64,000 bases of DNA from Pohlia nutans (taxonomy: Eukaryota > Streptophyta > Bryopsida > Bryales > Mniaceae). Below, piece by piece: positions 1-61,800 of this stretch (positions are counted from its first letter, which is position 1; each line of letters opens with the position of its first letter). The notes below the pieces were generated by a model that was not told the origin of the DNA, searched no databases, and saw only the letters and a list, made by a program, of their open reading frames with translations. The translations under genes and the position numbers were made by a program. Location: the NCBI GenBank assembly GCA_022496805.1, contig CM040107.1, positions 13,007,501 to 13,071,500 on the forward strand, given 5' to 3'.

Positions 1-59
1 AAATGTGTTATTTTCGCTTTAATTCAGCCCTATGATTTACAGTTTAAATACAAGTACCA

Positions 60-1325
60 GACGGTAGTTTAGGTCGATGTCAGTTTAGGTCGATGTCAGT
101 TTAGCTCGACACATTGTAAATGGGCAGCGAAACTCGCGTGATAAACGATAATTTAGGTCGGCCCGATCTAAACTTCACCAATACAAGTCACATCTGAACT
201 CGACTCTCCCAAAACCGCAGTCAATTCAGGTCGACACGACCTAAATCGCAGTCAATACAGATCGACTCTTCCTAAACTGCAGTCAATTCAGGTCCACACG
301 ACCTAAATTGCAGCCAATTCAGGTCGACCCGACCTAAATTGCAAAAAATTCATCTCGACACGACATAAATTGCTGTCAATTCTGACCTAATCTCGGAACT
401 TCACGTTATCGTACACCAAGTCTAGGCTGAAACATGTAGAACATGAACATGTACCATGTGTGAATTCAGGTCGAATAGACCTAATTTATGCTATAAAGCA
501 ATACGAATCGGTCTGATCTACCTAAGATTCAGCTCGTTTTGACCTAAATCACATAAATAACCTACCCAAATATTGAACAATTTCAAACTAGGACGACCTA
601 CTTAAAGGTCGGGATACCCTAGAATACCAAATCTTATAATCAATTCACATAAAGCTTAGCACAAAATAGTAAAAACACTCTCCCCCTCCAGCAGTTTAGG
701 TCGAATCGACCTAAATAAAGAACTATCGGTCATCGTTTGCGAAGAATAGGCTGGAAGTTCTAAAACTTGAACATGTATCAAGTGCGAATTCAGGTCGAAT
801 CGACCTAATCTACCCTAGAACTCAGTACGATTTGACTAGATAGCTGCCTAAGATGCGCAGATTCAGATCAAGGCAGCCTTTACGGCCATGAATGGCCTAC
901 AATGATCGAATGATATCCTGTATAGTAAACAAGAAAAAACACATAAGATGTGAACATTCAGGTTGACCCGACCTAAATTGCTCGCTAAGTAGGGCAATTC
1001 AGGTCAGGTCGACTTGAATGTTCACATTTTCTGTGTTTCTTCATGTACTTCCGAATATCCGTAATTCCTTAATACACAAAGTCCTTACCTATATTTCCTC
1101 TTTAGGTCGGGTCGACCTAAAGAGTATCACATTCACGACTCAATGCTTCATACATATGAAGCGTACTACATCCTTCAAGATTAAGAGCCTCGTCTAATTT
1201 TTAGGTCGATCCGATCTAATTTACGATGAACCCCTAGATGCTCGCAACAGACAAGTCTGCAGTACGCATCTCTACATAGGCATGCTGATGTGTGTGTTGT
1301 GCATTTTAGCTCGTACCGACCTAAA
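60..1325. repeat. Class-A palindrome array upstream of gene A copy 1
   Basis: About 16 dispersed copies of an odd palindrome, core GGTCGA-N-TCGACC usually extended by TTTA or TTCA on the left and TAAA on the right. Good copies start near 225, 318, 692, 788, 956 and 1101; others are degenerate or half sites (69-110). The last copy (about 1302) lies some 30 bp before the start codon of gene A. Spacing is irregular, roughly 40-150 bp. The array is equivalent to 43970-45105 in copy 2. It holds no coding sequence. Confidence 0.9.
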
Positions 1326-2814
1326 CATCGTCTGTCCTCGTTGTGAACAAAATGGCAACAGAGAGGAAGACACCAAGGGAACAGCAAAGTGAACCCCTCA
1401 ACCTCTACTACAAGAAAGTTGCACATCCACAAAGCACGGATGATGCAGAAGACGACGACCTCGCGAACTTCGGGGAGTTCTGGGAACTGCAGGAACAAAA
1501 GCATGTGCAGTTCTGGAGTCTGAACATGATACCAATGACTCGTGATTGCTGCTTGATCACGAAGAACGCCAATACACCGACCTACCTCCCACTCTCATTA
1601 TACGAGAAGGTGAAAGACATCAGCAACGGTGATGGCTCCAAAATCATGTTGCACTGCGTGACAACAAGAACTGAATGGGAAAAGAAGAATCAGTACAACT
1701 TCACGCTGATTCTTGACTCCGCTGTCATTCCATTCAATATCAGCCCCTTGATAGCCTCTCTCGAACATACAGAATTCAGAGGAATGATGAAGGAGCTGGA
1801 GAATAAATTTGACAGCGAATACTTCACGTCTACCAACAGTCAGCCTCTGCTCGGGGCCCAACTCTGCTCAAAAATCCGAAAGGTGATCTAGAACTTCGAA
1901 ACCTTCAAGGCCAAGATGAACATGCAGAGTCTATCGATGACACCAATAAGTGTATCCCTCAATAACCGCAGCCAGGGAGGTAGTGCGGGATCCATGTTCA
2001 CAAACTCGCCAAGACCCCAACAGAGCCGTCGCAAGCGCAAGCCTAACACGCCTCTTACACCTACACCACCACCCAAAAGCCATCTCGGCTCCTCCTCGAA
2101 GAGGAAGAAAGCTGTTGACAAGACGGCATCTGAAGATGTCGACGACGTTAGCTTGGCATCCGCTGTGACCGAGTTGCCAGAGCCCGTGCAGGGAAACAAG
2201 AAACCAGATTTCACACGGTCGACCGAGGCGTACAAAACGTTCTGGTCGTCCTGCACTGAGGTCTTTGTCTGGGGAATCGAAGATAAGAAAACGATCCCCA
2301 TCGAGTAACTAGTCGATGCGCCTCCTGACATGAACATCAAGTCGTACGAGCCGGGTCTTGCGGAGAAGATCATGGGCTTCCTTCTCAGCATGCCGATAGA
2401 AGCACAAAGCAGACTCTGTGCGTCATGCCTTGCGACCTGGACGAGAAGCCCACTAGCTGGGACTCCATCAAAGATGGAAAGTCTGGGCTGATCAACGGGC
2501 AGCACAGTGTCAAAGCAAGTTTCATGATGCGCGAACAAAGGATGGATCGCAAAGACATCAAAGAGTTCGCGCAATGGAACTGCTTTATTGTTTGGACGAA
2601 GAACAACGAAAAACTTCGTCAAATATCCGCGTACTACAACCGGGTCAACCACTTCGGCGCCATCAAGCCGTCCTAGGCGACTAACATCTTGGGAGCGCGG
2701 CAGGTCTAGATTAAACTCAATCGCCCCAAGAACCCGAAGGAGTTAGTTCAGGTGGGAACAAGCAGTCAAGCGTCGCGAACGAAGGAGGCCGCGATCAACA
2801 AAACAAAATTCAAC

Positions 2815-3053
2815 GTAATGTTCAGCTCGACTCGACCTGAATAGCTTTCGATAGTACTCCAAGTCCTAGTCAGTCCCTACAGAGTAGATCCGTGGCACCT
2901 GCGAGTTAGGTCAAGTCGACCTAAAATGCTTATGCTGTCGTGATCTTTTCTACTGATTGTCCTTGTAATCCGTGCTCTCCCCACTCTGTGTTGGTTTAGG
3001 TGGACTCGACCTAAATGACTCTATAATAGCTAACAGTGTATGTGCCCTTGCAG
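2815..3053 (+). other. Intron 1 of gene A copy 1, with class-A palindromes
   Basis: The donor is CAAC|GTAATG and the acceptor CCCTTGCAG|GAGTTTC. Both positions match the intron in copy 2 (46599-46818). Three class-A palindromes lie inside, near 2822, 2905 and 2995. Confidence 0.8.
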
Positions 3054-4401
3054 GAGTTTCAAGCTGCTATGAAGCTGCGGTTCCTGATGCTCGACGTGGC
3101 GCAGGCGCAGAAGGACGCCAAGAAAAGTAATGCGTCCGAACTGCTCGACATCCACAATGAGTTGAAGTTGATCACTGCGCCGGACGAGGTGTTCGACCTC
3201 TGGAGCGAAGTTATCTCAAGAGCGGGTGCCGGAGAGCTCCATGACCCAGACACTGATTTTCCGTTCAAGGACAAGCCTAACTGGAATCCAGAGAGTGGGA
3301 ATCTGACGCGCGAGTTCTTCAAATGGCTGGGAAATCTAACCTATGAGGACCCTCACCAAAATCGCGAGGCATATCCTGAACCACGGGAACCCAAAATGGA
3401 CTCGGGGATACCCGAAGGTCACGATTAAAGCAATATCCTGAGTTCAAGACAAGTGCTACTCGACCAAGGAATGGGTGGAGAGAAGGAAGCGGAAGCACCT
3501 TATCAAGAAGGAATTGCACAACATCAATCGTGATCTCGGACTCTTCAATCCGGCGGGGGAACTGGTTCCGGAGAAGTGGAGGCAGTTCAAGGAGGACTAC
3601 CACGTCACGAGGGCGACAATGAATGTACTCCTTGAGCGGCCGGATGAGGTATATTTCAGGGAGGCAAAGCAGGTCAGAAGCAAGAACAAGAAGACCGCAG
3701 AAATCTCCTCGTACGCGTACGAATTCTTCAAAGTCTTCCTGAAGAAGAGGAAGAAATTTGAGAAGCCCGCCGGCAACGCTCACTTTCGACCATACGACCC
3801 GCAGTTAAACGATTACGCCGACTAGCCCGAGGGCGCCTGGTCATTCGTCACGTTTGTGGACATGAAGCTGGGGGTCATCGACTTCAGAGTCCTCCCCGGG
3901 GTGGATGACAAGGAGAAGTCAAGTACGGATATGCCGTACTTTCACGAGTTCATGTCTTCTCTAAAAGAAAGACGTGAACTAGAATTCGATGAAGTACCTG
4001 CGTGGCTCTTCATCTGCGCCGATATGATAGAGCAGAACCTGGCAGTTCATTTCGCTGAGCACGACCAACTCCGCAGATACAAGATGGAGTATGCGGACTA
4101 CCATCCAGCAAGGAATGAGCGACTGGGAGACTATCCGGCGAACCATAAGAAGGCGCCGGCGAAAGTGCACCTGGTCTTCTTGCAAAGGCCCGATATTCCG
4201 ACGGTGTCGATCCCCCCCGACTTCTACGCTCCTGAGACCACAGTATACACAAAGCCCCGAGCGTATGATGAGCTGTTGTACCGCGTGTACAACGCAGAAC
4301 TCAGAATGGAGTTCTACTTGTGGCTCATGAACGCGTTCTGCATGCCGAGGTCGAACGTCGTCTCCATCTACGCGGGATCCAAGTTCACTTGCGCTGCACT
4401 G

Positions 4402-4914
4402 GTGAGTAGATCACCATTTGGAATCATGCCCTTCAGCTCGAGTCGATCTGACCCTACGTAGTGTTACCGTTCATACATTTTAGGTCGAGTCGACCTAAAA
4501 TTCATACCGGCATACTTGCTCTTCTAGGAAGTGCCCAAACTATACCCCCTACGTAGTGTTACTGTTCATACATTTTAGGTCGGGTCGACCTTAAATTCAT
4601 ACCGGAATACCTGCTCTTCTTGGAAGTGCCCAAACTATATCCTCAATGCGTTTCAGGTCGGGTCGACCTAAAAGTTCAGTGTGCAGCTCTTAGAGTCGAT
4701 GCTGTTGTTTAGCTCGGGTCGACCTGAACTAAACCTTAAACCTTCTCAGTGCCCCCATTCTTTAAATCGATTTGACCTGAACCATCCCTTCGTACTACCT
4801 CATCTCTTCGTGCTGCCTCTCCTTCACGATTTAGGTCGAGGCGATCTAAATCCTTCTCAATCCCCAATTATATCAACCCTGACTCACTTGTTGACTGCCA
4901 TGCCATTTGTGCAG
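4402..4914 (+). other. Intron 2 of gene A copy 1, with class-A palindromes
   Basis: The donor is CTG|GTGAGT and the acceptor TTTGTGCAG|ATGTGTTGC. It holds about seven class-A palindromes (near 4433, 4478, 4574, 4650, 4709, 4764 and 4829) and a partial internal duplication of about 95 bp (4457-4550 versus 4551-4645). The intron splits the methyltransferase-like motif region. Confidence 0.8.
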
Positions 4915-5916
4915 ATGTGTTGCGTGAACAGCTACGCTGTCGGGGACAAAAGAATAAAAGACTGGTTTGCTTCTATCGCGATCGACGCCTTAGACCTCGA
5001 CAAGGCAGACTTCCTGGAGGACGGATACCCTGTGCATGGTGATGGAGAGCAGAGTACCCCTGCTGCACGATCTGGGTCCTCCAGATCAAAGGGGAAATCC
5101 AGAGATCAGTTGTCTGATCCCCCTCTCACGCAGCGGGATGAGGAGAACTCGTAAACCTCCTCTTCCAATGAGGAGGATGATGACGAGGACGACGATGCTC
5201 CTCCTCTGGATACCCCCCGGAGATCTGATGCGCCAGGTTCGTCCGCGTCCTCTGGCTATCAGCTCGGGACTCCTTCCTCCGAGCGGAAGTCGAAGAGAAA
5301 GAAACGTGAGTCCTCGAACAAAATTTTGAAGACGTTGGCTACCACGGTTGCAGCTCTCACTGTTCAGACCTCGAAGACCGCGGAGGAGAATCTGAAGATG
5401 AACCAGGAGACGAGAAAAGAGGAGTACGATTTCCAGAAGTTTATTATGGAACAGCAGCGTCAGCAGCAACAGCAGCAAAATGTCATGCAGCGGACGCTGC
5501 AGGCGCTGATGCAGAGCCTTCTGCCGCCTTCTGGGGCCGTACTGAATCCGCTGCCGCTGGCTTCTCTTGGTAATCAGCCGTCGGGTTCAACCACCAGCGG
5601 AGAATCTGCTCCACCTGCGCCCTCGTTTTTTGCTCTTCTTCCTCCGCCTCCACCTGCGCCCTCGTCTCTTGATGCACCGCGTCCGCCTCCTCCTGCGCCC
5701 TCGCCTGTCGCTGCGCCTCCACCGCCGCCAGCTGCTCCTGCATCTGCTCCATCCACTTCGCCGGCTCCTCCGCATGTGTCATCGGGCGCTGCTAGTGATG
5801 CCGCCGATCCATACAGCCTTGACGACAATCTGGGATTCGGCGGAGCCGCTGGCAGTGACAATGCAGACACTGCTGTCTCGCCCGGCACAGACGCTGCAGC
5901 AGGTGGTTCCCAATAA

Positions 5917-6157: not shown

Positions 6158-7406
6158 GCTCCATCGCTGCCCACATTGTGCCTCACGCTCAATTGCCTTC
6201 TTCTGTTCATCCGCTCGTGCAATGTAATCGGGGCGGTCAGTCCTTGGTGCCCAGTCCAAAATCGCCCGCACTCCCTTCCTCTCATGTCGTCCCTCTGGCC
6301 TCTCAATCACTAGTGTCAGGACGTAGACTTCAGCGGGATTCGAAATTGGATGTGCGGACACGTACATCGGCCTCCCCTCCTCGTCACGTCGCCGGCGCTG
6401 CACCCTCGACAGCCACACCTGTCGTCAGTGCGAAGTCTATTGGGTCCTCCGGCCTTCAGGTGCGTTCCATACGTTTCTTAATGGTCGGAACTTCGTGTTT
6501 GTTGTCTTTGCGCTCGAACGTGTGCCGTTTTTATTACTATGTCGTCCAAAATGTGTCGGTTCAGGATCATAACTGGCTGCACATATGTCTGCCCGTTGTC
6601 GCCAGGGATCTGGTCCTCCTCTTACTCGTGGAGGTTCTTCGGAGTCGGTCATTCGGTCGCCACAGCTTAGGCCTCCCAAAAAATGGCTCAATGTCGTCCT
6701 AGACCTGAATGGAATCCTCTGCGTCTGTGTGGATTTGAAATCCCGGTCCGGGATTACGGCCTTTAATGAATACTCGGCGCAGCACTCGGCCGTTCTCCCC
6801 GCTGTAGTCGGACCGAAAGCAGTTTACGTGCGTCCACTCTTCTTCTCGTTCCTACGGGAGCTGACCATGTTTGCCGACGTTACCGTCTGGAGCTCCATGA
6901 AGAAGTCTGCCACTGAATTGGTAGTGCGATATTTATTCCGCGGCATCCAGCCCCTCCCTTCCTTTGTACTTGGCCAGGAGTCGTGCGAAACCCTCAAGTG
7001 TAGGGATAGGCACGGCCGGCTGTCCTCGTTCAAAGTGCCTAGCACTGATAAGAACTTGTTCCTTAAGAATCTGGCCAAGCTGTTCACAGGCTATGGTGGC
7101 AGAGTCATGTCCGCAAACACCGTTGTAGTGGACGACAGCCCCAATAAGCACATTTTGAATGAGCCCCATAATGTAATACTCCCTGACTCTTGGTCCTACG
7201 TTGGAGACGGTGCGCGTGACAATTTCCTCGATGATGTTCTCCTTCCATGGTTTCGGCGTCTCCATCGCAGTCCTGGCACAGGGTTGCTATCTTTCCGTAG
7301 GGACAATAATATTGGGCGGCGTATGCTCTGCGACGAGCCCGACCGTCAAGAGTACAGCGCGCTCATGGAGGCTGTACACGCATCCCATAGTCTGCCTAGC
7401 TCCTAG
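6158..7406 (+). CDS. Gene B copy 1: FCP1/NIF-like HAD phosphatase-family protein
   Basis: Two exons are visible: 6158-6459 (low-complexity, Ser/Pro-rich) and 6606-7406, joined in phase 0 by a GTGCGT..CGCCAG intron at 6460-6605. The second exon encodes an FCP1-homology-like domain: LDLNGIL in place of the DxDxT motif I, VTVWSSMKK as motif II and VVVDDSPNKH as motif IV. The second catalytic acid is Asn; DLNG variants are known in plant FCP1-like proteins, so activity is uncertain. No stop interrupts 6606-7406. A 3-prime splice site at 6157 implies an upstream exon that I cannot place. It lies 240 bp after gene A and is conserved in order in copy 2. A role in the element is not shown. Confidence 0.65.
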
Positions 7407-8535: not shown

Positions 8536-8939
8536 TCCGCTAGGCATTCTATTTGTAAAACAATATTGGGCCATTTCCTTGTCACGCTAGAAGAAAATCG
8601 GAGGAATACTTAGTTCATCACTCCAACTAAACAATCAAATGCATTCATCCATGATAAATGGATAGATACTTTACTTTAGAATTGTAACTATGGGCACAAA
8701 GACAAACCAACGATTTTGCAAATGTCCACATGTTGGATTAATGCACAAAAATAAAAAAGAAATTCATTGATCTCAAAAAAACTTCTTTGAAAGAATACTT
8801 CAAGCGCAATTCAAGTAGGCAACGGGTGAGTCTACATCTTTATGAGATTTACAAACCCTGCCACCGTTGAACTTGAATCGAGGTCAATGACAAGATTCAA
8901 AATTAATTATTGTCGTCATCTACGATTAAGATTGACCTC

Positions 8940-9850
8940 TCATCACCTTAGGCGTTCTTTCAACTCGAATCGAGTTGAATGAAAACATTCAAATTTTCGT
9001 CTACTACACTTGATTTTTCATGGGTGCTTTATAAAGCTAGATTCAAGCCGAATGGTAAGATACAAACCGTCATTACTACAATTTACTTTTCATGGGTGCC
9101 TCCATTCAACTCGAATCGAGTTGAATGAAAAGATTCAAGGAGTCATTTACTCCATTTGACTTTCCATAGGTGCGTCCGTTTAACTCGATTCAAACTGTCA
9201 TTAAATGATACGTCCATTCAACTCGATTCGAGTTGAATGGCATTTCATTTGATTTTTCATGTTGCATCCATTCACCTCGATTCGAGTTGAATGGCAAGAG
9301 CGTCCGTTCAATTTGATTCATTTCATTTGATTCTCCATGGTGCGTTCATTCAACTCGATTCGAGTTGAATAGCGAGAGCGCCCAGTTCATTTCATTTCAT
9401 TTTCCATAGTACGTTCATTCAACTCGATTCGAGTTGAATTGCAAGAGCGTTCATTTAACTCAATTCGAGTTGAATGGCAAGAGCATCCGTTCAACTTGAT
9501 TCATTTCATTTGACTTTGCATGGTGTGTTCATTCGAGTTGAATGGCATTTCATTTGACTTTTCATGTTTTGTACATTCAACTCCATTCGAGTTGAATAAC
9601 AAAAGCGTGTGTTCATTTCATTTGACTTTTCATGTTACGTTCATTTAACTCGATTCGAGTTGAATAGCAAGAGCGTCCGTTCATTTCATTTCATTTTCCA
9701 TAGTACGTCCATTCAACTCGATTCGAGTTGAATTGCAAGAGCGTTCATTCAACTCGATTCGAGTTGCATTGCAAGAGCGTTCATTCAACTCGATTCGAGT
9801 TGAATTGCAAGAGCGTCCGTTCAACTCGATTTGAGTTGAATGACAAGATT
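8940..9850. repeat. Class-B palindrome array, left arm
   Basis: About 14 copies of CAACTCGA-N-TCGAGTTG, often flanked by ATT and AAT. Examples start near 8953, 9106, 9218, 9350, 9418, 9645, 9712, 9747 and 9782. Between copies recurs a spacer rich in TTCATTTCATTTGACTTTCCAT and GCAAGAGCGTCC. Spacing is from 35 bp (9712-9817) to about 100 bp. Confidence 0.9.
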
Positions 9851-10670: not shown

Positions 10671-10904
10671 CCACCCCAAATTTGGATTTGACATTATTGT
10701 ACAGTTGACTTTTTGTGTTGTACAAAGTTGCAAATTGTAAATATGAAAATTAAAAAATCTACTATATTCCACATTATATAAATAAATAAAAATGTACAAA
10801 CAATGCACTCTTTGTTTGTACATTTCCAAAAGTGCATAGTCATCAACATTGAAAAAAATAAAAAAATAAATTTATGTCTGAGGATGTATTGTGCTTGAAT
10901 TTAG

Positions 10905-11947: not shown

Positions 11948-11981
<34 letters not shown>

Positions 11982-20324: not shown

Positions 20325-21235
20325 ATCTTGTCATTCAACTCAAATCGAGTTGAACGGACGCTCTTGCAATTCAACTCGAATCGAGTTGAATGAACGCTCT
20401 TGCAATGCAACTCGAATCGAGTTGAATGAACGCTCTTGCAATTCAACTCGAATCGAGTTGAATGGACGTACTATGGAAAATGAAATGAAATGAACGGACG
20501 CTCTTGCTATTCAACTCGAATCGAGTTAAATGAACGTAACATGAAAAGTCAAATGAAATGAACACACGCTTTTGTTATTCAACTCGAATGGAGTTGAATG
20601 TACAAAACATGAAAAGTCAAATGAAATGCCATTCAACTCGAATGAACACACCATGCAAAGTCAAATGAAATGAATCAAGTTGAACGGATGCTCTTGCCAT
20701 TCAACTCGAATTGAGTTAAATGAACGCTCTTGCAATTCAACTCGAATCGAGTTGAATGAACGTACTATGGAAAATGAAATGAAATGAACTGGGCGCTCTC
20801 GCTATTCAACTCGAATCGAGTTGAATGAACGCACCATGGAGAATCAAATGAAATGAATCAAATTGAACGGACGCTCTTGTCATTCAACTCGAATCGAGGT
20901 GAATGGATGCAACATGAAAAATCAAATGAAATGCCATTCAACTCGAATCGAGTTGAATGGACGTATCATTTAATGACAGTTTGAATCGAGTTAAACGGAC
21001 GCACCTATGGAAAGTCAAATGGAGTAAATGACTGCTTGAATCTTTTCATTCAACTCGATTCGAGTTGAATGGAGGCACCCATGAAAAGTAAATTGTAGTA
21101 ATGACGGTTTGTATCTTACCATTCAACTTGAAACTAGCTTTATAAAGCACCCATGAAAAATCAAGTGTAGTAGACGAAAATTTGAATGTTTTCATTCAAC
21201 TCGATTCGAGTTGAAAGGACGCGTAAGTTGATGAA
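20325..21235. repeat. Class-B palindrome array, right arm
   Basis: Mirror of 8940-9850, with a handful of substitutions between arms (for example the pairing around 9485 and 20685). It ends about 650 bp before the DUF7869 remnant. Confidence 0.9.
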
Positions 21236-21351
21236 AAGTCAATCTTAATCGTAGAGGAAGACAATAATTTGAATCTTGTCATTGAACTCGATTCAAGCTC
21301 AACGGTGGCAGGGTTTGTAAATCTCATAAAGATATAGACTCACTCGTTGCC

Positions 21352-21699: not shown

Positions 21700-21884
21700 C
21701 TACATATACTTTAATTGCTCTGAAATATTCTTTCAAAGAATTTTTTTCGGAATCAAATAATTTCTTCTCTATTTTTGTGCATTATTGCAACATGTGGATA
21801 TTTGCAAATTGTTGGTTTGGCTTGTGCCCACAGTTACAATTTTTAGAAGTCCCCTTGTGGTTTTGAAAGTCTTAAATACACTAC

Positions 21885-22740
21885 ACTATTGGGGACGACA
21901 AGAGTAGATTTGTGTTTGGATATCCTTTTTTTCTTATTGCTAGATAGATTTCTAATAAGATTATGTAAGTCATCTTTGTTTGTCATGTGTATAGCGACAT
22001 CGACACTTAGTTACGAGATGGAGTATGAAATTGAAAATGTGAACTTCCCTACCATTCCATCTTTTATTAAGGTGGAATTTGTGCCTACAATTCTTCACCT
22101 TATTGAGGAGGTACCAAATTTCAAAACCTCCGGAGAAGCCTAGATTTTGCAAACGGTGGATGTACCTGTTTGCCTTGCATAGATGCAACAATTTGAATTA
22201 TATTTAAATTCGATGGGTTTTTCTATTTTGAATTACAGGCCAGCCGGATAGTGATCGGTTACTAGAAAAAGGCAAAGTAATAAATTGTGCAAGAGGATTC
22301 TAAAAAACAAAGTTTATGGCCTCATAGGTAGTGGATGTCCATTGTCCTCTAATTTGGTGCATGGATGACATTTACAAGAGGTTATTTGGGTTCATCAAAT
22401 ATTTGGAAATATTGTGCAATGAAGATGGAAGTGGGGGTGCAAGAGACAATTTGAGAATTTGGTCTTCTATTGGTGGGTGGTGAAGGAAACCTTAAAAGAG
22501 CCAAATGAATTGTCTATAGCATTGAAGGACAATTTATGGCCTTCTTTTTTAATCAAAACAATAGAGGAAGAAAAACTTGATGAAGATGGTGTGGAGTTCG
22601 TTGAGGATAATACCTATTTAGTGCAACTCTACAGTTCTCTATTTCTATTTTTTTGGGTGGTGCATGATCTTTTTGAAGGATTTTTTGTTGCCCTTCAATC
22701 AACTAATGATCATTTGAAGTTTGTATAGATTATAAGAGCC
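21885..22740 (+). pseudogene. DUF7869-type transposase-like remnant next to class-B array
   Basis: Fragments in shifting frames align with the better copy at 32873-35725. Near 21885-22010, GTTRVD plus FFLIAR and SDIDT match the DNKN..LLIAR..HTHDDID region; NFPTIPSFI and PTILHLIEEVPNF (22040-22130) match NFPTIPLLM and PTIPHLVEEVPDF; and FYWWVVKETLKEP..LKDNLWP (22460-22570) matches HYWRAVKVALQEP..LKDGFWP. Identity is low and stops are many, so this copy is older. DUF7869 is known as a transposon-associated domain; an RNase H-like transposase role is inferred. Confidence 0.7.
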
Positions 22741-22989
22741 TTGTCTAATCCTTTCACTAACTCGGAACATTCTAATTGTGTACTGGTTTAATACTTTTGG
22801 GCTTTGGCACACTTCACAAGATCGAAATGCTTCAGAGTTATATTGGAGGTGGGACTTTGCCAAAGATTATGTTGGAAAGGGGACAAGATCCATAATCAGG
22901 ACTAGCAAGAGACAAAAATTTTCATCAAAGTATAGAAGTCTATGATCAAGAAGAACATAGTGAAATGTGTTCTTAAAATATCATTGTTT

Positions 22990-23400
22990 AGTATTGGTGT
23001 TATCGATGGAAGTTTAGCTTAGAACAATTTTGATAGAGCGTGTATGAGATACTATAGATATACTTTGTAATATTTAAAGCTATGTTGATAGTTTCTATTT
23101 GATATTTCATTCTTTATGTTTTCCTCTATATAATTAGAGATGATTTTATATATTAAAATTATGCTGCGTGTTGTCAAGTACTTAGTACATATTGGAGTAC
23201 TATGATTCAATTTTATAGATTTGTATTGGAACTACTTTTTTACATTGTATGAAGCACCTTATGCAATAAATGCACTTAAACGTAGTATTTAATATATTTA
23301 CACTTACATTATACATTGACTTGTATCTATGTTGGTGTCATTTTCCTTATTTGTTCACTTTATAGATCTCTTTTGAAAATAGAGTACAAGTAGAAAATAT
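22990..23400. other. AT-rich spacer
   Basis: No gene, repeat or structured element was recognised. Confidence 0.5.
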
Positions 23401-23404
23401 TGGT

Positions 23405-23685
23405 AGTAGATAGGAACAATTTCTATTCTCTTGACTCATTAAGCACTTGTCACAATTTCAAAAGAGGGGCTAGTTGGTTGTTTAAAACTTTATTACATGT
23501 AAAGTTCACCAAGGAACTCCAAATCATGTTTATCTTGTATCCACTCATACAAATTCAATGGAAATTGAACCCAACCCATTTGAATGAGATAAATAGCCTC
23601 TTACAACCAACCATTCACCTTATGACTTGGTGTTCAAAAAGGGATACAATATGCACTTATATAGGAGATCACTATTATTATTGAT
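23405..23685 (-). mobile_element. tRNA-derived SINE, diverged copy
   Basis: Read on the minus strand it has an A-box-like GTGAATGGTTGG following CACCAAGTCAT, a B-box-like GGGTTCAATTTCC, and a 3-prime part with ACAACCAACTAGCCCC and GTGACAAGTGCTTAA. It aligns end to end with the copy at 32228-32468. Confidence 0.7.
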
Positions 23686-23689
23686 AACT

Positions 23690-25249
23690 ATAATTTTTTG
23701 GAAGACACTTTGATTACCAAATCTCTCATTTTAATGGAAATTGTAGAGTACAATTACAAAATTGAGTTCTACTCATCTTAAAACTACTTCAACTCTACTT
23801 CAGTTATAGGACCACAAATGAACAATATTATTTTGAGAGGCTGCTAATCTCTCATTTTAATGAATATGATGTTCCTTGTGGCAGCATCACAAACCCAGTT
23901 TTTTAGGTGCGCGTCGACGACACAAATGGATGTGTACACACAACATCAAAGCCATGTAGTAGTGGACGTCTTAGCCGCCAAGCGTTCGCTGTTGGCTGGA
24001 CATCAACCTTGCATATGGCTTCGTGCATCTATTGTGTGGTTGGCTACAACACTCATAGATGTCGACGGTGTGGATGGATTGTCTCGATACAACGTGTTTC
24101 TAATTGAGTTGCGTCCGTATTAAGGTTTTTGCGTGTACACTGTGAATAGCAACCTAATACATGGACGCAGTGCAATGATCGGCAGTGGCGCCCACGAATT
24201 TTTACCATATTATATTTGTTACCGGACCGAGACATGGCCGCCACTGAGGACAAGGAGATAGAAGACGGTAGAACTGGCAGTGTTTGGCTTAGATTACGGA
24301 TCAGGCTTAAATATAAGAAGTAGTGTACGATAGGGACGAGACACTCTTGGTTTTTGAGACTTATGAGCATTTAGTTATGCTCTGGTTTTGTTGTACCAGG
24401 AAGTCATTCCTTGCTTATTCCATATTAAACCTGGATTCCATGGTTGTGAGTTTATGTATTACATGGGTTCAATTCCTCTGTTTAACATAGTTCTGTAGAC
24501 TTAGTCTCTATACTGTATACATGCGTTATTACATCCTTGGAATAAACATCAGTTCTTGCATCCCGTGTCTCTACTGTTCTGTCTTCACTACTGATGTCAC
24601 CTTAATGATATCTAACTTGGAAGGCTGGGACAACATGTGCTTTCCTGCTTGACTAACTCTAATACCAATACTTAGGCTAAATAGCTATTCTTTCTAACTA
24701 CTCCTACCAAGCTGTCCCTACTTTGACCTCCGTCTTCAGGCGTATTCTCAGTTATACTCTGTCTTTTTGCCTTCAAAACACTCATTATCCAAGGACACCA
24801 AGGACGTCTAGGAACTAACCCTTACTTAGTTTAGTTACTCACAGTCTACCTCCTCTATCACACAGCTTTCTCTGACTTTGTCTAACTCGCAAGGAGTCCA
24901 AGTACGCCAAGGAAGTCCTACACCGTATACTATCGGAGAACCAGTGTATAAGTGGTATACATTATTGTATACCCTCCTGGGGAACCAAGGCATACCATGG
25001 AACTTGGAGCACGTACTTATTAACTAACCACTGACTAACTCTACTTGACTTCTTAACTTCTGCCCTCTCCCCCTTGTCTTCCTTGATTAGGCAGCTCTAC
25101 TGGCCTAAGTCTGGTCTCAGTCATCTCCATACAATTACCCAGGCTAACAATATTATAATGCTTTATACTTAATTATACTATAAATCCTGACAAAATAATA
25201 TTTTAACATTTCGTACCATTGTATTTCAAAAAGTCCAATTACAATTGTA
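23690..25249. other. Unassigned stretch
   Basis: Mixed-composition sequence. Short frames (23860-24123 plus, 24053-24370 minus) have no recognisable domain. 24340-25200 resembles neither a gene nor a complete LTR; ACCAAGG, AAGGA and GTATAC motifs recur. Confidence 0.4.
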
Positions 25250-32468: not shown

Positions 32469-32469
32469 A

Positions 32470-35814: not shown

Positions 35815-36835
35815 GGTAGCTCGAGGCGAGCTAAATCTGAAGAGGGGATTTCGGAAGATGTACATACAGAACCGGAGGGATTCAAAAGCAAAAGGGTGGA
35901 TACTCTTGCAGCCCCGAGCGGAAGGCTATGGTCAATCATCGGATTTCGTTTATGTCGAATCGACCTCATCTGTCTTGACCATGTCTCAATGTAGGTCCGG
36001 CAGACCTAAATTTTCTAGAAACAGATCTGTATAGACAGAGATTCCATAATCATCTCAACTTAGGTCGGATTGAGCTAACTTGTTGTGAAGGTTTTCTTCA
36101 TCCATCCGGTTATACGATGAACGTATGAGGAGAGGTACCTCAGTTGAGGTCGACACGGGCTGAGTTGAAATTTGGGGTGACAGATTTGACTCACCGCTAG
36201 GTTTTCAACAGAAGATAACTATCAGGTGTAGTTTAGGTCGAGTCGACCTCAAATGTGGATACAGCAAACCCATACGGAAGGGTATCGCTCATATGAGATT
36301 TAACTGTCCTCTCACTTTAGGTCGCCTCGATCTGAATGGAGGAGAAGAGATGGCACGGAATACAATATAGAATGTTTACAGAAAGGAAGGGTTCGATATA
36401 CTTTAGATCGTTTCGATCTGAATTAGGATTATCAGATTACGTGCCATCTACGGAGTTCAGCTCGACCCGACCTGAAGAAGCAACAAGAAGCCAGGTGATC
36501 AAGTGTGGAGTACCCGATTGATTTAGGTCGAGTCGACCTAAACCCCGACGACAAATCTTGCGCCAGTACCAGGCTACAATATGGTAAAGTAGGTGAAACT
36601 TAGGTCGAGTCGACCTAAAGTGGAGGATCACTCTAGCTCGAGTACAAGGCTAGATGTAGGTAACGTTGGTGCCAATTAGGTCGAGTCGACCTAAACATGA
36701 AGATGAATATCGCTCGGATACAAGGATTAATGTAGGTAACGTTGGTGCCAATTAGGTCGACTCGACCTAAATTGGTGGATGGCTCTCCCTCACTTACGAG
36801 GCGAGATAATCAGGTCGAGTCGATCTAATATGTCC
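35815..36835. repeat. Class-A palindrome array upstream of DUF7869 gene
   Basis: Fourteen copies start near 35819, 35946, 35990, 36060, 36143, 36230, 36317, 36401, 36454, 36521, 36598, 36676, 36752 and 36811. The central ones are perfect AGGTCGA-G-TCGACCT, and four are spaced 76-78 bp with a shared spacer (GTAGGTAACGTTGGTGCCAA in two), so part of the array expanded by tandem duplication. Confidence 0.92.
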
Positions 36836-41863: not shown

Positions 41864-41865
<2 letters not shown>

Positions 41866-42592: not shown

Positions 42593-42599
42593 GGCTCCC

Positions 42600-43205: not shown

Positions 43206-43968
43206 CTTCAAATCCCATGTTTCAAATCCCATGTTTCAAATTTTTGTACAAAATGCTCCGTCTTTGCTCTTGTGTGTTCTTTGAAGGGTTAAAAAACATG
43301 GTAATGAATATCTGGCTGGGATTCATCTTCTCTAAATTGCTTCCGTTCAATTCTATTTGGAATTGGGTTTACTATTTAGGTGTTTCGTCATTAGTCTGCA
43401 TATTAGCCAGTGCATGAGATGACTATCAACAACTAGGATGCTTTCGAATTATTTCACCAGAATCAATGAAGAAACTTGTCGTGTTCATCAAAACATATGG
43501 GCATGGAGGAATTGAACAACGAATTTTTGGGGTTTGGGCTTTTGGAAGTAGTGGTTTCCATTTGCTAGACTCGGACTCTAGACCCGGTTCTATGTCTGAG
43601 TGAAGCACTGTTTGTGCTCGAAGGCATTGTCAATGATGTAGAAAGAGCTCCACCTTCTGCAAGTGGAATCGTAAGAATTGTAGTGTTCTTGCTGGAGTGA
43701 GTAGCCATTGATGTTTTTGGATTTGGGTGCTGGTATTGGTTGCTGATTCTATGGGTGTTGTATTGGTTGCAATGTTTCAGATTCAGCAAGTTGGCCATCA
43801 GGAGCAATTTTTTTGTAGAGTTTTCAAGTCATATTACAGGAGGTTAGGTCAGTGCTCTACTAAAATGCAATGTCTACCTGCAAATGATATAGAATAGTTT
43901 TAGATTTGCTCTGTTCTGTTATGTTTAAGGAGAATGGTGTTTGAATAACCTGCTAGTGATAGATGTTA
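43206..43968. other. Unassigned spacer before class-A array
   Basis: Short frames only. One (about 43502-43580) begins MEELNNEF but stops quickly. No gene is supported. Confidence 0.4.
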
Positions 43969-43969
43969 G

Positions 43970-45105
43970 TTTAGGTCGATGTTAGTTTAGGTCGAGTCGA
44001 TGTAATTGGACACAGAAACTGTCGAGGGAAACATTAATTTAGGTCGACTCGATCTAAGCACACACATAAAAGTCTTGCCAGAAACGGTATTCCAGATCGT
44101 GTCAACCTAAAATTCACCAGTAATTGCCTCAGATCAGCTCGGATCGGCCTAAATGGCGGTCTGTTGAGGTCGACCCGACCTAAAGTACTATATCTTAAAA
44201 CAAATAGAAAGAAAACCTAGAAGAAAAGATTCGGAAGAAGGATTCTCCCATCCAGCAGATCAGGTCGAATCGACCTAAATCCGCGATTAGAGATCGTATT
44301 TGTCGAATTCTAGAGTAGGAGGACTTGCCTATGTGCTAATTCACATCGAATCGAACTAAATTACCCCAAACATCGATATAACTGCAGTCCATTTCGGTCG
44401 ACCCGACCTAAATTTCTATTACTTATGATCAATAGAAAAAAAAACCTAGAAGAAAACATAAGTTAGAAGCAGTGAACCAGTCCAGAAGATCAGATCAAAT
44501 CGATCTAAATCCGATATTACGTATTGGATTTGCTGAATTCTAGAGTAGAAAGTCTAGCACATAAGAAGGTTCCAACTGTAAATTCAGATTGAGACGACCT
44601 AAGATACCCCAATTGCAATAAAATTGCAGTCCATTCAGGTCGACCCGACCTAAATTACCATACCATATAATCAGCTAATATTAGTAATCAATTAGAAAAA
44701 AATATATTTAGATTGAGTCGACCTAAGTGGCCTCAAATGTACTGCGTCCAAGCCATGACAAAGAGCTCAGAATTCCACAGAATCCCATTCAACCTATATC
44801 ATAGGCACCACATAATATATCTGTCACTCCTAAATCACCAAAGTCCTTGACTGTAATTTATATTTAGGTCGGATCGACCTAATTAAAAGAGTCCTACTTA
44901 AAGAACTGTATCATATGATACATATGAAGCGTACTACAACCGTGTAACATTCACGCCGGTCTAAACTTCAGCTCGTCCCGAGCTAAACGATGATGTAGGA
45001 CTGATCAAAATAGACATCCAAGTTTCTAGCCAATGGTGATCATGCATGATAAAATTGGTATTTGATATCTCTGTCGCACACTTTAGTTCGTACCGACCTA
45101 ATTCT
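43970..45105. repeat. Class-A palindrome array upstream of gene A copy 2
   Basis: About 15 copies (near 43971, 44037, 44164, 44261, 44391, 44491, 44634, 44707, 44863, 44966 and 45083, with degenerate ones between). The first part (double TTTAGGTCGATG half sites) matches 68-110 in copy 1, and the last site lies some 30 bp before the gene A ATG, as in copy 1. Confidence 0.9.
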
Positions 45106-46598
45106 TTGTCTGTCCGCGCTGTGAACAAAATGGCAACAGAGAGGAAGACACCAAAGGAACATCAAACGCCAAAGCTTAAGCTCTACTACGAGAGGGCAGC
45201 TCATCAGCCACACGCGGATGATGACCAGGCGGGCAACGACCTGGCAAACTTTGGGGAGTTCTGGGACATGAAAGACCAGGACTTGCAGGAGTACTGGAGC
45301 CTACGCATGATAGGGAATACACGAGACATTTGCTTCACGACGAAGGCCAAAAATGCGCCGGGCTTCCTTCCTCTTTCAAACAACGAGAAGATTAAGGACA
45401 TCAGCGCGGCTGAAGGATCTAAGATATTGATTCATTGCGTCACAACGAGAACGGAATGGGATAAGAAGCAGCAATACAACTTCACGCTCACCTTCGACTC
45501 GGCTGTGATCCCATTCAACATCACCCCCCTACTACACTCTCTTGAAACGACCGAGTTCAGTGAATGCATCAAGGAGTTGGAGGACGGTTATGACAATAAA
45601 TACTTCCAGAGTAGCAACGGTCAGCCGCTGCGTGGGGCACAGCTCTGCTTAGAAGTTCGCAAGTTCATCCAGAACTTCGACGTCTTGAAGGCAAAGGTGG
45701 AATCGCATCAGAAATCAATGGCACCTGTAAGCATGTCCCTCGATAACCGGAGCCAAGGAGGGAGTGGGGGATCCATGGGCAACTTCTCGCCAACTGCAAG
45801 ACCGCAACAGAGCCGAGGCAAACACAAGCCCAACACGCCTCTCACACCTTCTGGAGCACTACGCCAAAGCAACCTCGCCTCCTCCTCAAAGAAGAGGCAA
45901 CCTGCAGAGAAGTTGGCACTTGAGGCTGTCAACGAGGATAGCTTGGCGTCCGCTGTGACGGAGTTACCGGAGCCCCTGGTCGGCAACAACAAACCCGACT
46001 ACGTGCGCTCGGCAGAAGCGTACAGGACGTTCTGGACGTCTTGCACTGACGCGTTCCTGTTCGACGTCGACGATAAAAAGTCAATCCCCATCGAACAGCT
46101 AATTGATGCGCCTCCGCACATGAACACCAAGAGTTACGAGCCGGAACATGCGAAAAAGATCATGACCTTCCTTCTCAGCATGCGAGATAGAAGCACAAAG
46201 CAGACTCTGTGCGTAATGCCTGTCGACCAGGCCACTAAACCGACTAGCTGGGACGCCATCAAAAATGGAAAGTTCTGGCTGATCAATGGACAGCACAACG
46301 TCTAAGCCAGTTACATGATGCGCGATGACGGGATTGACGAGAAAGACCTCAAAGTCTTCGCGTTATGGAACTGCTTTGTCGTGTGGACGGACAGTAATTA
46401 CAAAAAACTTCGTCAAATATCCGCCTACTACAACCGCGTCAACCACTTCGGCGCCATCAAGCCGTTATGGGTGACAAACATATTGGGAGCGCGGCAAGTA
46501 TGGATAAATCTCGACCGCCCCAAGAATCCAAAAGAACTCAAAGATGTGGGAACGGCATATCAAGCCTCCAGGCCGAAAAAAACAAAGCAAAATTCAGG

Positions 46599-46818
46599 GT
46601 AATGTTCAGATCGGGTCAACCTAATACGCTTCGTAGTCCATCCCATAGAGTAGATCCGAGACAACTTCAAGTTAGGTCGACTTGACCTAATACGCTCGAT
46701 CTATGCCCTGCCTCGCCTACTACCTTGCCATCCATGCGCTCCATGAACATTTGTTTGTTTAGATCGAGTCGACCTTAAATCACTGTATGATAGCTAACGG
46801 TATACGTACCCCCTGCAG
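46599..46818 (+). other. Intron 1 of gene A copy 2, with class-A palindromes
   Basis: GTAATG..CCTGCAG, the same position as in copy 1. Three class-A palindromes lie near 46606, 46671 and 46757, aligned in order with those of copy 1. Confidence 0.8.
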
Positions 46819-48170
46819 GAGTTTCAAGCAACTATGAGGCTGCGGTTCTCGATGCTCGACGTGGCGCAGGAGGAGTGAGACGCAAAGAAAAGTAATGCCG
46901 AAGCGTTGCTCGACATCCACAATGAGCTGAAACTGATCACTACGCCGGACGACGTTTTTTCTCTTTGGAGCGGAGTGATCTCAAGCGTAGGTGCCGGCGA
47001 GCTTCATGACTCGGATAGTGATGGGAAGTTCTGTGAAAAGGCGAACTGGAATCCCGAGAGTGGGAATCTCACGCGCGAGTTCTTCAAGTGGCTGGGAAAT
47101 TTAACCTACGAGGACCTCGCGAAATTGGCCAAGCATATCCTTCATCGCGAGAACCCAAATGGACCAAGGACTACCCGAAAGTCACGATTAAGGCAATATC
47201 CTCGGTTCTAGACAGGTGCTATTCTACCAAGGAATGGGTGGAGAGGAGGAAGCGGAAGCACCTTGTGAAACGGGAATTGCACAACATTGATCGATCTCTT
47301 GGGCTCTTCAATCTGGCGGGGGAATTAGTGCCTGAGAAGTGGAGGCAGTTCAAGAAGGGCTACAACGTCACAAGGGCGACCATGAATGTCCTCCTCGAGC
47401 GGCCGGGAGAGTAGTACTTCAAAGAGGCCAAGCAGGTGAAGAGCAAAAATAAAAAGACCGCAGACATCTCACCTCACGCGCACGAATTCTTCAAAGTCTT
47501 CCTGGAAAAATGAAAAGAATTCGTGAAGCCGTCAGGTAAGGCTCACTACCGGCCATACGACCCGAAGGAAAACATCCATTCCGAGTGGGCGGACGGCGTC
47601 TGGACAATCGACGAGGCCAAATTCATGACATTGGGGGTCATCGACTTCAGGAACCTCCCCGGGGTGGAGTAGAAAGAGAAGTCATGTACGGGGATGCCGT
47701 ACTTTTACGAGTTCATGACCTCTCTGAAAAGGAGAGGTGAACCGGACTTCGATCAAGTGCCTACGTGGCTCTTTATCTGCGCCGACATGGAGGAGATGCA
47801 CCAGACAGTTCATTTTGCGGAGGGCGACGAAGTCCTCCACAAATACAAAAAAAAGTTTGTCACCTACCTTCCGGCTAAGGACGAGCGTCTGTACGATTTG
47901 CCGGCAAATTCTAAGAAGGCGCGAGCAAAAGTGGAGCTCCTCTTCTTGCAAAACCCCAAATTACCGATAGTGCGGATGATCCCCGACGAATTCAAGGCGC
48001 CAGACACTACGGTATAAACGAAGCCTCGGGTGTACGATGAGTTGCAGTACCGTCTGTGCAGGGGGGAACTCAGAATGGAGTTCTACTTGTCGCTCATGAA
48101 GCTGTTTACGACAACGGGGTCGAATATCTTCTCCGTCTACGCGGGATCCAAGATCACTAGTGCTGCTATG

Positions 48171-48549
48171 GTACGTAGCGCATGACTCGATCTTCAGCTC
48201 GGGTCGATCTAAACATTTGTAGTTTTAGCTCGGGTCGACCTAAACCTGCTGTCGACAGTCCTTTAGTGTAGGTTCAGATTGGGTCGACCTATTCCCCTGT
48301 AGGATTAGCTCCCATACCCTAATCAACCTAAACCCTGTCGTATTAGGTCAAGTCGACCTAACCTTTACAGTTTCCCCCCTCTTCAGCTTGTTTCGACCTG
48401 AAACTAACTCCTCTCTGGTTCCCTGTCTCTCCGTCGTAGTTGAAAGCTGCCTGCCAGGAAAAGTTTAGGTCGAGTCGATCTAAATCTTTCTTGCTGCTCC
48501 ATTTCAGCGACCTCTAACTCAGTTCATCATTGCCGTGTTATTTGTGCAG
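48171..48549 (+). other. Intron 2 of gene A copy 2, with class-A palindromes
   Basis: GTACGT..TTGTGCAG. Six class-A palindromes lie near 48192, 48225, 48266, 48344, 48381 and 48465. Length and palindrome number differ from copy 1 (513 bp, seven sites). Confidence 0.8.
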
Positions 48550-59296: not shown

Positions 59297-60391
59297 TCAA
59301 TAAAGACCCTTTGTGAGCTCATCCGTCACCATGTGCTCCGTTGGACAATACTCCAACCGTATAACTCCCAATTCCAACTTCTCCCGAATGAAGTGGTATT
59401 GCACATCAATGTGCTTCGTGCGTGAATGATGTGTAGGGTTATTTGCAAATGAAATGCACCCTTGGTTGTCACACATGATCATTGTAGCATCACCTTGTGT
59501 GCAACCCACATCGACCATTAGTTGCCTCAACCAAATGGCCTCCTTCGTGGCATGGCTCGTAGCCATGTACTCGGCCTCCACCGTTGATGTCGCCGTGGTT
59601 TGTTGCCGCTTGCTATTCCACGATACTGCTCCCGATCCGACCTTGAACATGTAGCCCGTTGTCGATCTTCGATTGCTTGTGTCTCTCGCGTAGTCCGCGT
59701 CGCAATAGCCGCTCAACACAATGTCTTTGCCGCCAAGACACAACTTGACATTGCTTGTGCCCTTCAAGTAGCGCATAATCCTCTTGACCGCCATCCAATG
59801 CATTGAGCCCGGTCAGGCCATGTGTTGACTCACCACGCTAATTGGATACGCGAGGTCGGGCCGTGTCGCAATCATCGCATACATCAACGACCCCACCGCT
59901 TGCTTGTATGGCACCTCCGCCATGGATTTGGCCTCCGCCGCATACTCCTCCTCCGAAAGCTTGACGAGCTTGGAGTTTGCATCCAATGGTGTTGCTACGG
60001 GCTTACAATCCTCCATCCCGAATCTCTTGAGCACGTCCATCACATACTTGCCTTGACTCATGGTTATAGTGCGTGTAGCCCTGTCTCGCACAAACTCAAC
60101 ACCAAGACAAAAGTGCAATTCTCCAAGATCACTCATCTCGTACTCTCTCTCAAGCATGCCTTTTAATGCATTCATTGAACTCATGAGGCTTGCAAGAATG
60201 ATCAAATCATCAACATATATGATCACAATCACCACATGTTGTCCCTCTTGCATGAAGTAGAGACCATGATCCGCAATGCTCCTAGTAAACCCGTGTGCAA
60301 GCAAGAACGTGTCAATCTTTTGGTACCACGCTCTTGGAGATTGTTTCAACCCATACAATAATTTTTGCAACTTACAAACAAAGTGCCCCAT
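59297..60391 (-). pseudogene. Ty1/copia polyprotein fragment: reverse transcriptase (C-terminal) and RNase H
   Basis: It starts abruptly with FVCKLQKLLYGLKQSPRAWYQ of RVT_2. YVDD follows (about 60217), then the RT thumb region. RNase H then shows CDADYA, TVEAEYMA and DNQGCISFA, ending before 59297. A single in-frame TGA lies at 59810-59812. Gag, protease, integrase and the RT N-terminus are missing. The 5-prime edge joins the class-C gene A homologue directly, in another frame. Confidence 0.9.
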
Positions 60392-60767
60392 GCTCGTGCA
60401 CTTTGATGACTAGGGAGTGGAGGTGAGATTTACTCCTGCCGCTGTCATCCATTTCGTTCAGGGTGATGACAAGGTAATCGCTGTGGTAGGAGTCGACGAT
60501 TGTGACCTTCTCATTGTTGTTCCACACTAGGAATCCGGGTCCTCCTTTCTCAAGGTGCTTCAGGTAGACATATTTCTTGAACTGGCTCACCCCGAATGTC
60601 CAAGCTTCCACGCAGTCCTTGAATTTCCACAGAGTTCCGTGGATGGACTCCATCTCTGGTGGGATGAATGGCTCCGACTCAAATGGATTCTCAAATGGCT
60701 CCATGTATGGAAGGGTTGAAGAATAGTCATAAGTGTCCACTTGAGCCATTGGAATAGATCCGCACAT
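60392..60767 (-). pseudogene. Divergent gene A homologue (N-terminal part), truncated
   Basis: From the ATG at 60767 or 60749 (MAQVDTYDYS) the frame is open to the copia junction. The block G-LWKFKDCVEAW..PGFLVWNNNEKV matches gene A's G-FWDMKDQDLQEYW..PGFLPLSNNEKI in order and spacing, so this appears to be a third, diverged family member. ParB- and MTase-like parts are lost to the copia junction near 60390. Class-C palindromes lie upstream, as class A lies upstream of the other two. Confidence 0.55.
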
Positions 60768-60829
60768 GACATTGGGAATACGGTTTGTTAGCGATCGCGC
60801 AGTCCTATAGTATCTTTGACCCGAGGATC

Positions 60830-61800
60830 GGTTTTGTGTTTGAGATGCGTTAGGTGTGGTAAGATATGCAGACTTTATCTTTGGCTCGAGGATAAACTTG
60901 TCTGGGTTCACTATAATTCAGCTGAAATCTTTGTTATTGTTGCCGACTCGGTTATGAGTATCTTCGGGTCGAGGATAAACAACTTGCCTTGTCAAGAATC
61001 ACGAAGGCAATTTGGTTAACTGTTGTATCTCTGGGATAATTATCTTTTGTGCAGTTCTTGGTTGATATCTTCGAGTCGAGGATATGACGCTATTATCCTC
61101 GATGCGAGGATAATGTTTTATGACTCCTGTGACTAGGTAATGGGATTGCACCAGCCGGCGCATTGTACGGGTGTGGAGAATTATCCCTGAATCGAGGATA
61201 TTTGTGCGAATTTTTGTGCGGGTAGTTACTTTTGTATTGTGTTTTGGTCTCCGCCGTCTGCTTGCGAGTGAGATTTATCACTGGGTCGAGGATAATGGTA
61301 TGTGCAGGGATGATAGTTTCTTGTTTTATGTGTCATTTATTTCAAGTTTGCATTCCGTGATTGGGTTGGCTGATTGTTATCTTCGAGTCGAGGATAATTC
61401 TATGTCTGTTATTGGTATTTTATGGTTTAGGGTATCAATTTTTCTTGTGTTTGTAACATATATCTTCGAGTCGAAGATAATAATGCTCGAGTGCAATAGA
61501 ATTATCCTCGTGTCGAAGATATGTTTCTTCAAGACCATGATAACTATCCTGGATTTGAAGAGAATTATCCTCGAGTGGAAAATAATTATTCTCGAGTCGA
61601 AGATAATTATCCTCGAGTCGAAGGTAATCATGCTGGAGTTGCTGTTAATCATCTTGGATTTCAAGATAATTATCCTCGATTCGAAGATAATTATTGTCGA
61701 TTCGAAGATAATTATCCTCGAGTCGAAGATAATCATCTTTGATTCGAAGATAATTACCTTCGACTTCAAGGCACTTTCACTAATTTCGAAGATAATTATC
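60830..61800. repeat. Class-C palindrome array
   Basis: About 20 sites of the type ATCCTCGA-N-TCGAGGAT (variants with TTC or AAG). Single sites lie near 60892, 60968, 61070, 61094, 61185, 61282, 61379, 61463 and 61501. From 61550 to 61800 they are packed nearly back to back as AATTATCCTCGAGTCGAAGAT. Spurious long frames on both strands (61171-61833) arise from this packing. Confidence 0.92.

What the first reader, a model, noticed from the sequence alone, without database searches (positions are those of the whole stretch)
1..61800. Three classes of palindromic arrays share one TCGA-N-TCGA centre but have different flanks
Class A (GGTCGA-N-TCGACC), class B (CAACTCGA-N-TCGAGTTG) and class C (ATCCTCGA-N-TCGAGGAT) are all odd-length palindromes with an unpaired central base flanked by TCGA. 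Each forms its own array of 14-20 sites: A at 60-1325, 35815-36835 and 43970-45105; B at 8940-9850 and 20325-21235; C at 60830-61800. Arrays do not mix classes. This looks like one kind of binding site whose outer bases diverged per family, as expected if a dimeric or pseudo-symmetric protein co-evolved with its sites. I know of no described repeat family with this design.
Basis: partly seen in the sequence, partly recalled or inferred. Interest (0 to 1): 0.92.

Follow-up and report, generated by a model that had tools for sequence, protein, structure and literature searches.

The report
Palindrome arrays of plant-like mobile elements
Clusters of near-identical mirror-image DNA sites sit just in front of genes of repeated, probably mobile elements in a plant-like genome; they look like docking sites for a paired protein, and their outer letters differ between element groups.

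Summary
The arrays are real: 114 sites in ten clusters against 5.7 per shuffled window, 113 of 114 keeping their cluster's class. The two B arrays are one array copied in an inverted duplication. Each A element has two more small arrays, probably in introns. The DNA is plant-like. Arrays end about 26-107 bp before candidate start codons of two gene families. 'Gene 1' (class A; perhaps C) has a second half modelled as a beta-class DNA-methyltransferase fold lacking the catalytic motif. DUF7869 genes (classes A, B) are probably transposases, an inference. An independent intact DUF7869 locus, L001, has A-like palindromes on both sides. Half-sites change independently (13 matched double changes, 12.8 expected), favouring a protein dimer over a cruciform. 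The two class A arrays before gene 1 are phased at 10.5 bp; the others are not, save C through its 21-bp tandem unit. Best reading: promoter-proximal, subterminal sites for an element-encoded dimer, working like TNPA sites of En/Spm or piggyBac-type palindromes. Class fits clade within each family on few data, but class A serves two unrelated families. The binding protein is not identified.

The parts
60..1325 (.). class A array before gene 1 of element A1: 16 scored palindromes from 100 on, half-sites from 68; spacings phased at 10.5 bp
1352..5913 (+). gene 1 of element A1 (decayed copy): N-half 1352-2841, C-half about 3030-4420 (methyltransferase-like fold), probable last exon to 5913
   Evidence: gene 1 profile hits for the N-half; homologues; fold of a homologue; exon limits inferred from frames
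2821..3015 (.). three class A sites between coding segments of gene 1 (inferred intron)
4432..4850 (.). six class A sites and one ambiguous site between coding segments of gene 1 (inferred intron)
6573..7403 (+). NLI/CTD-phosphatase-like ORF downstream of gene 1 in A1
   Evidence: Pfam NIF, E 8e-13; same neighbour in A2
8867..9840 (.). class B array, left arm, 15 sites
   Evidence: within the inverted repeat 8680-13707 / 16468-21841
20334..21302 (.). class B array, right arm, 16 sites; inverted copy of the left
21723..23691 (+). decayed DUF7869-family gene next to the right B array; the part matching L001 residues 1-492 was not found
32200..35725 (-). DUF7869 gene (decayed) whose upstream side carries a class A array
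35815..36829 (.). class A array, 14 sites, upstream of the DUF7869 gene; not phased
43963..45102 (.). class A array before gene 1 of element A2: 15 scored sites from 43986 on; phased at 10.5 bp
45130..48200 (+). gene 1 of element A2 (decayed), 74% identical in DNA to A1 over the longest aligned stretch
46605..46778 (.). three class A sites, inferred intron of A2 gene 1
48193..48484 (.). six class A sites, inferred intron of A2 gene 1
60375..60767 (-). start of a possibly gene 1-like, very diverged ORF beside the class C array
   Evidence: gene 1 profile, single-sequence E 4e-4; 4 of 5000 shuffles score as high
60810..61753 (.). class C array, 19 sites, partly a 21-bp tandem repeat

Best explanation
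The arrays are cis-acting binding sites of a family of repeated, probably mobile elements in a plant-like genome. Each site is a 19-21 bp dyad (T at -9, a class-specific triplet at -8 to -6, TCG, a 3-bp centre, then the mirror) read by the two halves of a protein dimer. Arrays fill the non-coding DNA directly before an element gene (gene 1 or DUF7869), in gene 1 also its inferred introns, and in L001 both sides of the gene. Several bound dimers would bring the element's ends together for transposition and would regulate the promoter that they adjoin. When the binding protein of an element lineage changed specificity, its array changed at -8 to -6, giving classes A, B and C. Shown: sites, classes, positions, independent half-sites, phasing in two arrays, an independent locus with sites on both sides. 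Inferred: mobility, promoter function, dimer binding, and which protein binds (the DUF7869 product or the methyltransferase-fold gene 1 product).
Against: No terminal inverted repeat was found for A1 or A2 in the stretches compared and no target-site duplication was established; the right ends seem lost to a Copia fragment and to the B duplication. In the window no array was found on the far side of the DUF7869 gene. The DUF7869 model is poor (mean pLDDT 56) and matches no solved structure (best E 0.6), so its transposase role rests on motifs and on one source's label (P0088). Phasing is absent in the DUF7869, B and intron arrays (held-out R 0.04), and in C comes from the 21-bp tandem unit (unique spacings R 0.34, not significant). 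Class A serves two unrelated genes. The link of C to gene 1 is weak. The B array has only a decayed DUF7869 fragment beside it.
Confidence: 0.7

Rival explanations
1. The arrays are sites for a host transcription factor that the elements exploit as promoters; the classes reflect different host factors.
For: Arrays sit upstream of candidate start codons; one class A serves two unrelated genes, as a shared host factor would; sites also lie in inferred introns.
Against: Outside the ten clusters the window holds 5 of 119 scored sites; L001 has sites downstream of the gene too; the classes look like variants of one site, which different host factors would not predict.
Confidence: 0.15
2. The palindromes are kept because they fold (cruciform DNA or RNA hairpins).
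For: Near-perfect dyads, strongest in class B.
Against: No significant excess of compensating changes in any class (A 13 against 12.8 expected, B 1 against 0.3, C 5 against 5.4). No Rfam family in the window at gathering score.
Confidence: 0.05
3. Passive satellite-like tandem duplication without function.
For: Local 31-, 36- and 21-bp tandem units exist.
Against: Many spacers differ in length while the sites stay conserved; clusters recur at the same places in A1 and A2, whose 5' array middles no longer align as one stretch, and at a homologous gene in L001.
Confidence: 0.05
4. The palindromes are methylation targets of the gene 1 methyltransferase-like protein, marking the element's own DNA.
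For: Beta-class methyltransferase fold; the sites contain TCGA, a sequence that known adenine methylases modify (recalled).
Against: The catalytic D-P-P-Y motif is absent in 38 of 38 aligned members (D-[FL]-R in 36), and motif I reads [FYW]-x-G-x-K in 30 and F-x-G-x-G in none, so activity is doubtful; arrays also adjoin DUF7869 genes, and no ORF like gene 1 was seen in the 4.3 kb of L001.
Confidence: 0.15

Closest known systems
En/Spm (CACTA) subterminal repeats bound by TNPA
   Same: Arrays of short repeats near element ends; motifs diverge between subfamilies while a part is shared, and divergence together with the binding protein has been proposed (PMC2613891, passages read).
   Different: No CACTA-type transposase domain in the 20 ORFs scanned; here each site is a 19-21 bp dyad with a common TCG-N3-CGA core, before genes and in inferred introns; gene 1 has a methyltransferase fold.
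piggyBac and piggyBat subterminal palindromes
   Same: Palindromes near the ends are bound by a dimer, one C-terminal domain from each transposase monomer; the palindromes of the two relatives are unrelated in sequence; piggyBat's left end repeats its motif pair three times (PMC11707139, passages read).
   Different: There few palindromes per end (three in piggyBat's left end), here 14-19 per main array; no piggyBac-type domain was found in the ORFs scanned; here the classes share a core.
Galileo/Foldback long terminal repeats with multiple THAP-domain sites
   Same: Several transposase sites inside long repetitive ends, thought to build a multimeric end complex (PMC3688188, passages read).
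   Different: No THAP domain in the ORFs scanned; no long terminal inverted repeat found on A1 or A2; the B inverted repeat cuts through a DUF7869 remnant and so looks like a duplication rather than element ends.
ParB-fold and methyltransferase fusion proteins of phages and archaea
   Same: The N-half of gene 1 has an 'INGQH' stretch with weak DUF6551 matches, and its C-half a beta-class methyltransferase fold; such fusions are described (PMC12704722, passages and section 7).
   Different: Eukaryotic; the ParB-like part is only a lead (DUF6551 E 0.048, below cut-off, with an unrelated Pfam family scoring better, E 0.009); the methyltransferase motifs are degenerate; partition is not implied.
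Mobile elements that carry methyltransferases (charophyte and dinoflagellate retrotransposons; Mariner elements of algal viruses)
   Same: A mobile element with a DNA-methyltransferase-like gene (PMC5890265, abstract read; PMC3627910, passages read).
   Different: Those described there are cytosine-C5 enzymes or other methyltransferase families; here a beta-class amino-methyltransferase fold that probably lacks activity.

Membership tests
CACTA (En/Spm) DNA transposon | CACTA-type transposase domain (tnp2/TNPD) | tested here: not met
   20 window ORFs scanned against Pfam at E up to 1 gave DUF7869, NIF, RVT_2, a B3 match below cut-off and weak unrelated families, but no CACTA transposase; the genes are decayed, so a lost part is possible
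CACTA (En/Spm) DNA transposon | CACTA terminal inverted repeats | tested here: inconclusive
   the left ends of A1 and A2, where their homology starts (59 and 43961), do not begin with CACTA; the right ends are lost
CACTA (En/Spm) DNA transposon | arrays of subterminal repeats | tested here: met
   (as arrays; binding not tested)
Long-TIR Foldback/Galileo type | long terminal inverted repeats holding the sites | tested here: not met
   no inverted partner of the A1 or A2 left end within the stretches compared; the B inverted repeat cuts a DUF7869 remnant
piggyBac family | piggyBac-type transposase | tested here: inconclusive
   no such Pfam family among 20 decayed ORFs nor among 40 DUF7869 homologues
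Beta-class DNA amino-methyltransferase (gene 1, C-half) | methyltransferase fold of the beta class | tested here: met
Beta-class DNA amino-methyltransferase (gene 1, C-half) | catalytic motif D-P-P-[YW] and motif I F-x-G-x-G | tested here: not met
   D-P-P in 0 of 38 aligned members, D-[FL]-R in 36; [FYW]-x-G-x-G in 0, [FYW]-x-G-x-K in 30, gaps in 3
ParB-like protein with parS arrays | ParB N-terminal domain | tested here: inconclusive
   DUF6551 in 2 of 7 trimmed members, best E 0.048, below cut-off; Spy1 in 2 of 7, best E 0.009; no ParB chain among the 3 PDB matches
DUF7869 protein as DDE-type transposase | RNase H-like catalytic fold | tested here: inconclusive
   the model of that part is under pLDDT 50; no credible fold match
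Mobile element | target-site duplication / empty site | not testable with these tools
   ends lost in the window and no relative with an empty site at hand

The most novel reading that the evidence does not exclude
A plant DNA-transposon lineage built on an undescribed transposase family (DUF7869) and a helper with an inactive methyltransferase fold, both using one evolving palindromic address code (TT-NNN-N-TCG-N3-CGA mirror). Three bases per half-site set which element lineage an array belongs to, and a phased array acts as a cooperatively filled platform at the helper's promoter.
Probability: 0.3. Interest if true: 0.78.

Novelty: new variant of a known kind. Interest (0 to 1): 0.62.

Why it matters
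If right, it gives a readable case of protein-DNA recognition co-evolving in mobile elements: the same dyad in three classes, next to the genes that probably encode the readers. It would also give DUF7869, a Pfam domain of unknown function, a role, and show a beta-class methyltransferase fold reused in a plant-like element.

Tried and rejected
Cruciform or RNA structure: no excess of compensating changes, no Rfam match at gathering score. TCGA-N-TCGA as a strict core: fails for class A centres. The two B arrays as independent evidence: rejected. B inverted repeat as a long-TIR transposon: its edge runs through a DUF7869 remnant. Terminal inverted repeats of A1/A2: none found. DUF7869 fold: model too poor, no credible match. 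ParB-like N-half: not established. Other family matches of gene 1, taken as chance: PABC_AtC3H46 in 3 of 15 N-half members (E 0.0075), Tugs in 5 of 38 C-half members (E 4e-4), unnamed phrog_34937 in 9 of 38 (E 7e-4). Helical phasing as a general rule: it holds only for the two gene 1 upstream arrays; the held-out arrays together give R 0.04 (46 spacings), B spacings lean out of phase (R 0.46, p 0.055), and the pattern was noticed before it was tested. Other genomes: viral contigs gave no relative of P0022, of gene 1 C-half or of DUF7869 and no exact B core; the A pattern gave four loci with one exact site each and no array. Genome contigs gave none for gene 1 and one DUF7869 locus among 13 pattern matches. 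Literature: no paper in the held library contains 'DUF7869'; searches listed no title or abstract start that describes these arrays. Only listings were seen for most hits; passages of PMC12704722, PMC2613891, PMC3688188, PMC3627910 and PMC11707139, section 7 of PMC12704722 and the abstract and section list of PMC5890265 were seen. That bounds the claim of novelty.

Full report
What is there. The window is eukaryotic and plant-like, by inference: a Copia reverse transcriptase (E 1.5e-35), a B3 match below cut-off, and DUF7869 homologues of which the one listed with an organism name is from the moss Physcomitrium patens (P0035). The species is not known. Exact TCGA-N-TCGA occurs at 49 places, 46 of them in the clusters. 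With each class consensus and up to 6 mismatches of 20, 114 sites fall into ten clusters and 5 outside; three shuffles average 5.7 per window. Of the 114, 113 match best the class of their cluster. Four class A clusters are new: two in each A element, at matching places between coding segments of the same gene.

Architecture. A1 (from about 60) and A2 (from about 43963) are copies, 74% identical in DNA over the longest aligned stretch. Each has a 5' array, then 'gene 1', then a NIF phosphatase-like ORF. Gene 1 has relatives in public data: 14 for its first half, 93 for its second. The B arrays lie in the arms of an inverted repeat of 4.9 kb and 99% identity; a decayed DUF7869 gene follows the right arm, and the edge of the repeat runs through it. 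The C array stands before an ORF that may be a very diverged gene 1 (single-sequence E 4e-4; 4 of 5000 shuffles as good); this link is weak. Between the last site and the candidate start codon lie 26 (A1), 27 (A2), 89 (DUF7869), 42 or 107 (C, depending on whether its weak last site counts) and 85 bp (L001). The DUF7869 copy has an in-frame stop 20 codons after that start, and the C ORF offers several start codons, so these two distances are approximate.

Independent locus. The one DUF7869 relative found in the prokaryote genome collection, L001, is a 4.3-kb contig filed under a cyanobacterium, presumably eukaryotic contamination. Its DUF7869 ORF runs 947 codons without a stop (595-3438). Palindromes of the form TTTAG[CG]TCG-N3-CGA[CG]CTAAA with at most 6 mismatches number 14: six upstream, eight downstream, none in the ORF, against a shuffle mean of 2.2 and a maximum of 7 in 200; six of them have at most 3 mismatches (34, 114, 489, 3573, 3821, 4071). 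So palindromes belong to DUF7869 loci beyond this genome, and stand on both sides of the gene.

How the sites behave. In class A the conserved bases are T-9, A-7, G-6 and T-4 C-3 G-2; -10, -8, -5 and -1 vary. In C, position -5 is again the loosest. Classes differ at -8 to -6 (TAG, CAA, ATC) and share TCG. Matched changes on both sides are about as frequent as chance (A 13 against 12.8; B 1 against 0.3; C 5 against 5.4): each half is kept on its own, as when two subunits each read one half. Neighbour spacings of the A1 and A2 upstream arrays are near multiples of 10.5 bp (R 0.77 for 25 within-array unique spacings; 0 of 5000 jittered sets as high), placing the sites on one face of the helix. 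The other arrays do not show this (held-out R 0.04, 46 spacings), except C through its 21-bp tandem unit. I noticed the pattern before testing it, so its weight is moderate.

Classes and genes. Within DUF7869, over the C-terminal part, the A-array copy and L001 (A-type) are 52% identical over 292 columns; the B-side copy is 36% identical to the first (196 columns) and 28% to the second (128 columns). Decay lowers the figures for the B-side copy. Within gene 1, A1 and A2 share class A and the C gene is hardly recognisable. This fits class following clade, with few data points. But class A serves both families, so class does not name a gene family. Either both genes answer to one binding protein, or they belong to one element system. 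In several cases DUF7869 and gene 1 homologues list the same longest-contig length (for example 312168 and 313938), which suggests that they occur in the same genomes.

Verdict. The interpretation (one design, dimer, outer bases diverged) is well supported; co-evolution per gene clade is plausible but rests on few loci. The closest known designs are the TNPA-bound subterminal repeats of En/Spm, where divergence of motif and binder has been proposed (PMC2613891, passages), and the piggyBac-type palindromes bound by a transposase dimer, which also differ between relatives (PMC11707139, passages). By the domain test made here this is not a CACTA element.

Noticed in passing
51500-54400: Inside the A2 element lies a repeat-rich insert with many GGCCGGCACCGGC-like motifs, reminiscent of a CACTA element's repeats (recalled), splitting the homology of A2 to A1.
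   Followed up: no
11676-12972 and 17203-18498: A 1.3-kb internally inverted element sits at the mirrored place in both arms of the B inverted repeat.
   Followed up: no
8680-21841: Inverted duplication with 99% identical 4.9-kb arms and a 2.8-kb spacer; identity falls to 94% and 85% at its outer edges, which may point to gene conversion in the middle.
   Followed up: partly
6573-7403 and 57918-58340: An NLI/CTD-phosphatase-like ORF follows gene 1 in both A elements; it may be element cargo.
   Followed up: partly
5940 and 57176: A single conserved site of mixed type (left half A-like, right half B-like) lies between gene 1 and the phosphatase ORF in both A elements.
   Followed up: no
30893-31165: Remnant of a B3 DNA-binding domain (Pfam E 3e-5, below cut-off) between the two DUF7869 genes.
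   Followed up: no
L001 1-4327: A contig filed under a cyanobacterial genome (CADCWO010000071.1) carries a DUF7869 gene with palindromes; probably eukaryotic contamination of that assembly.
   Followed up: partly
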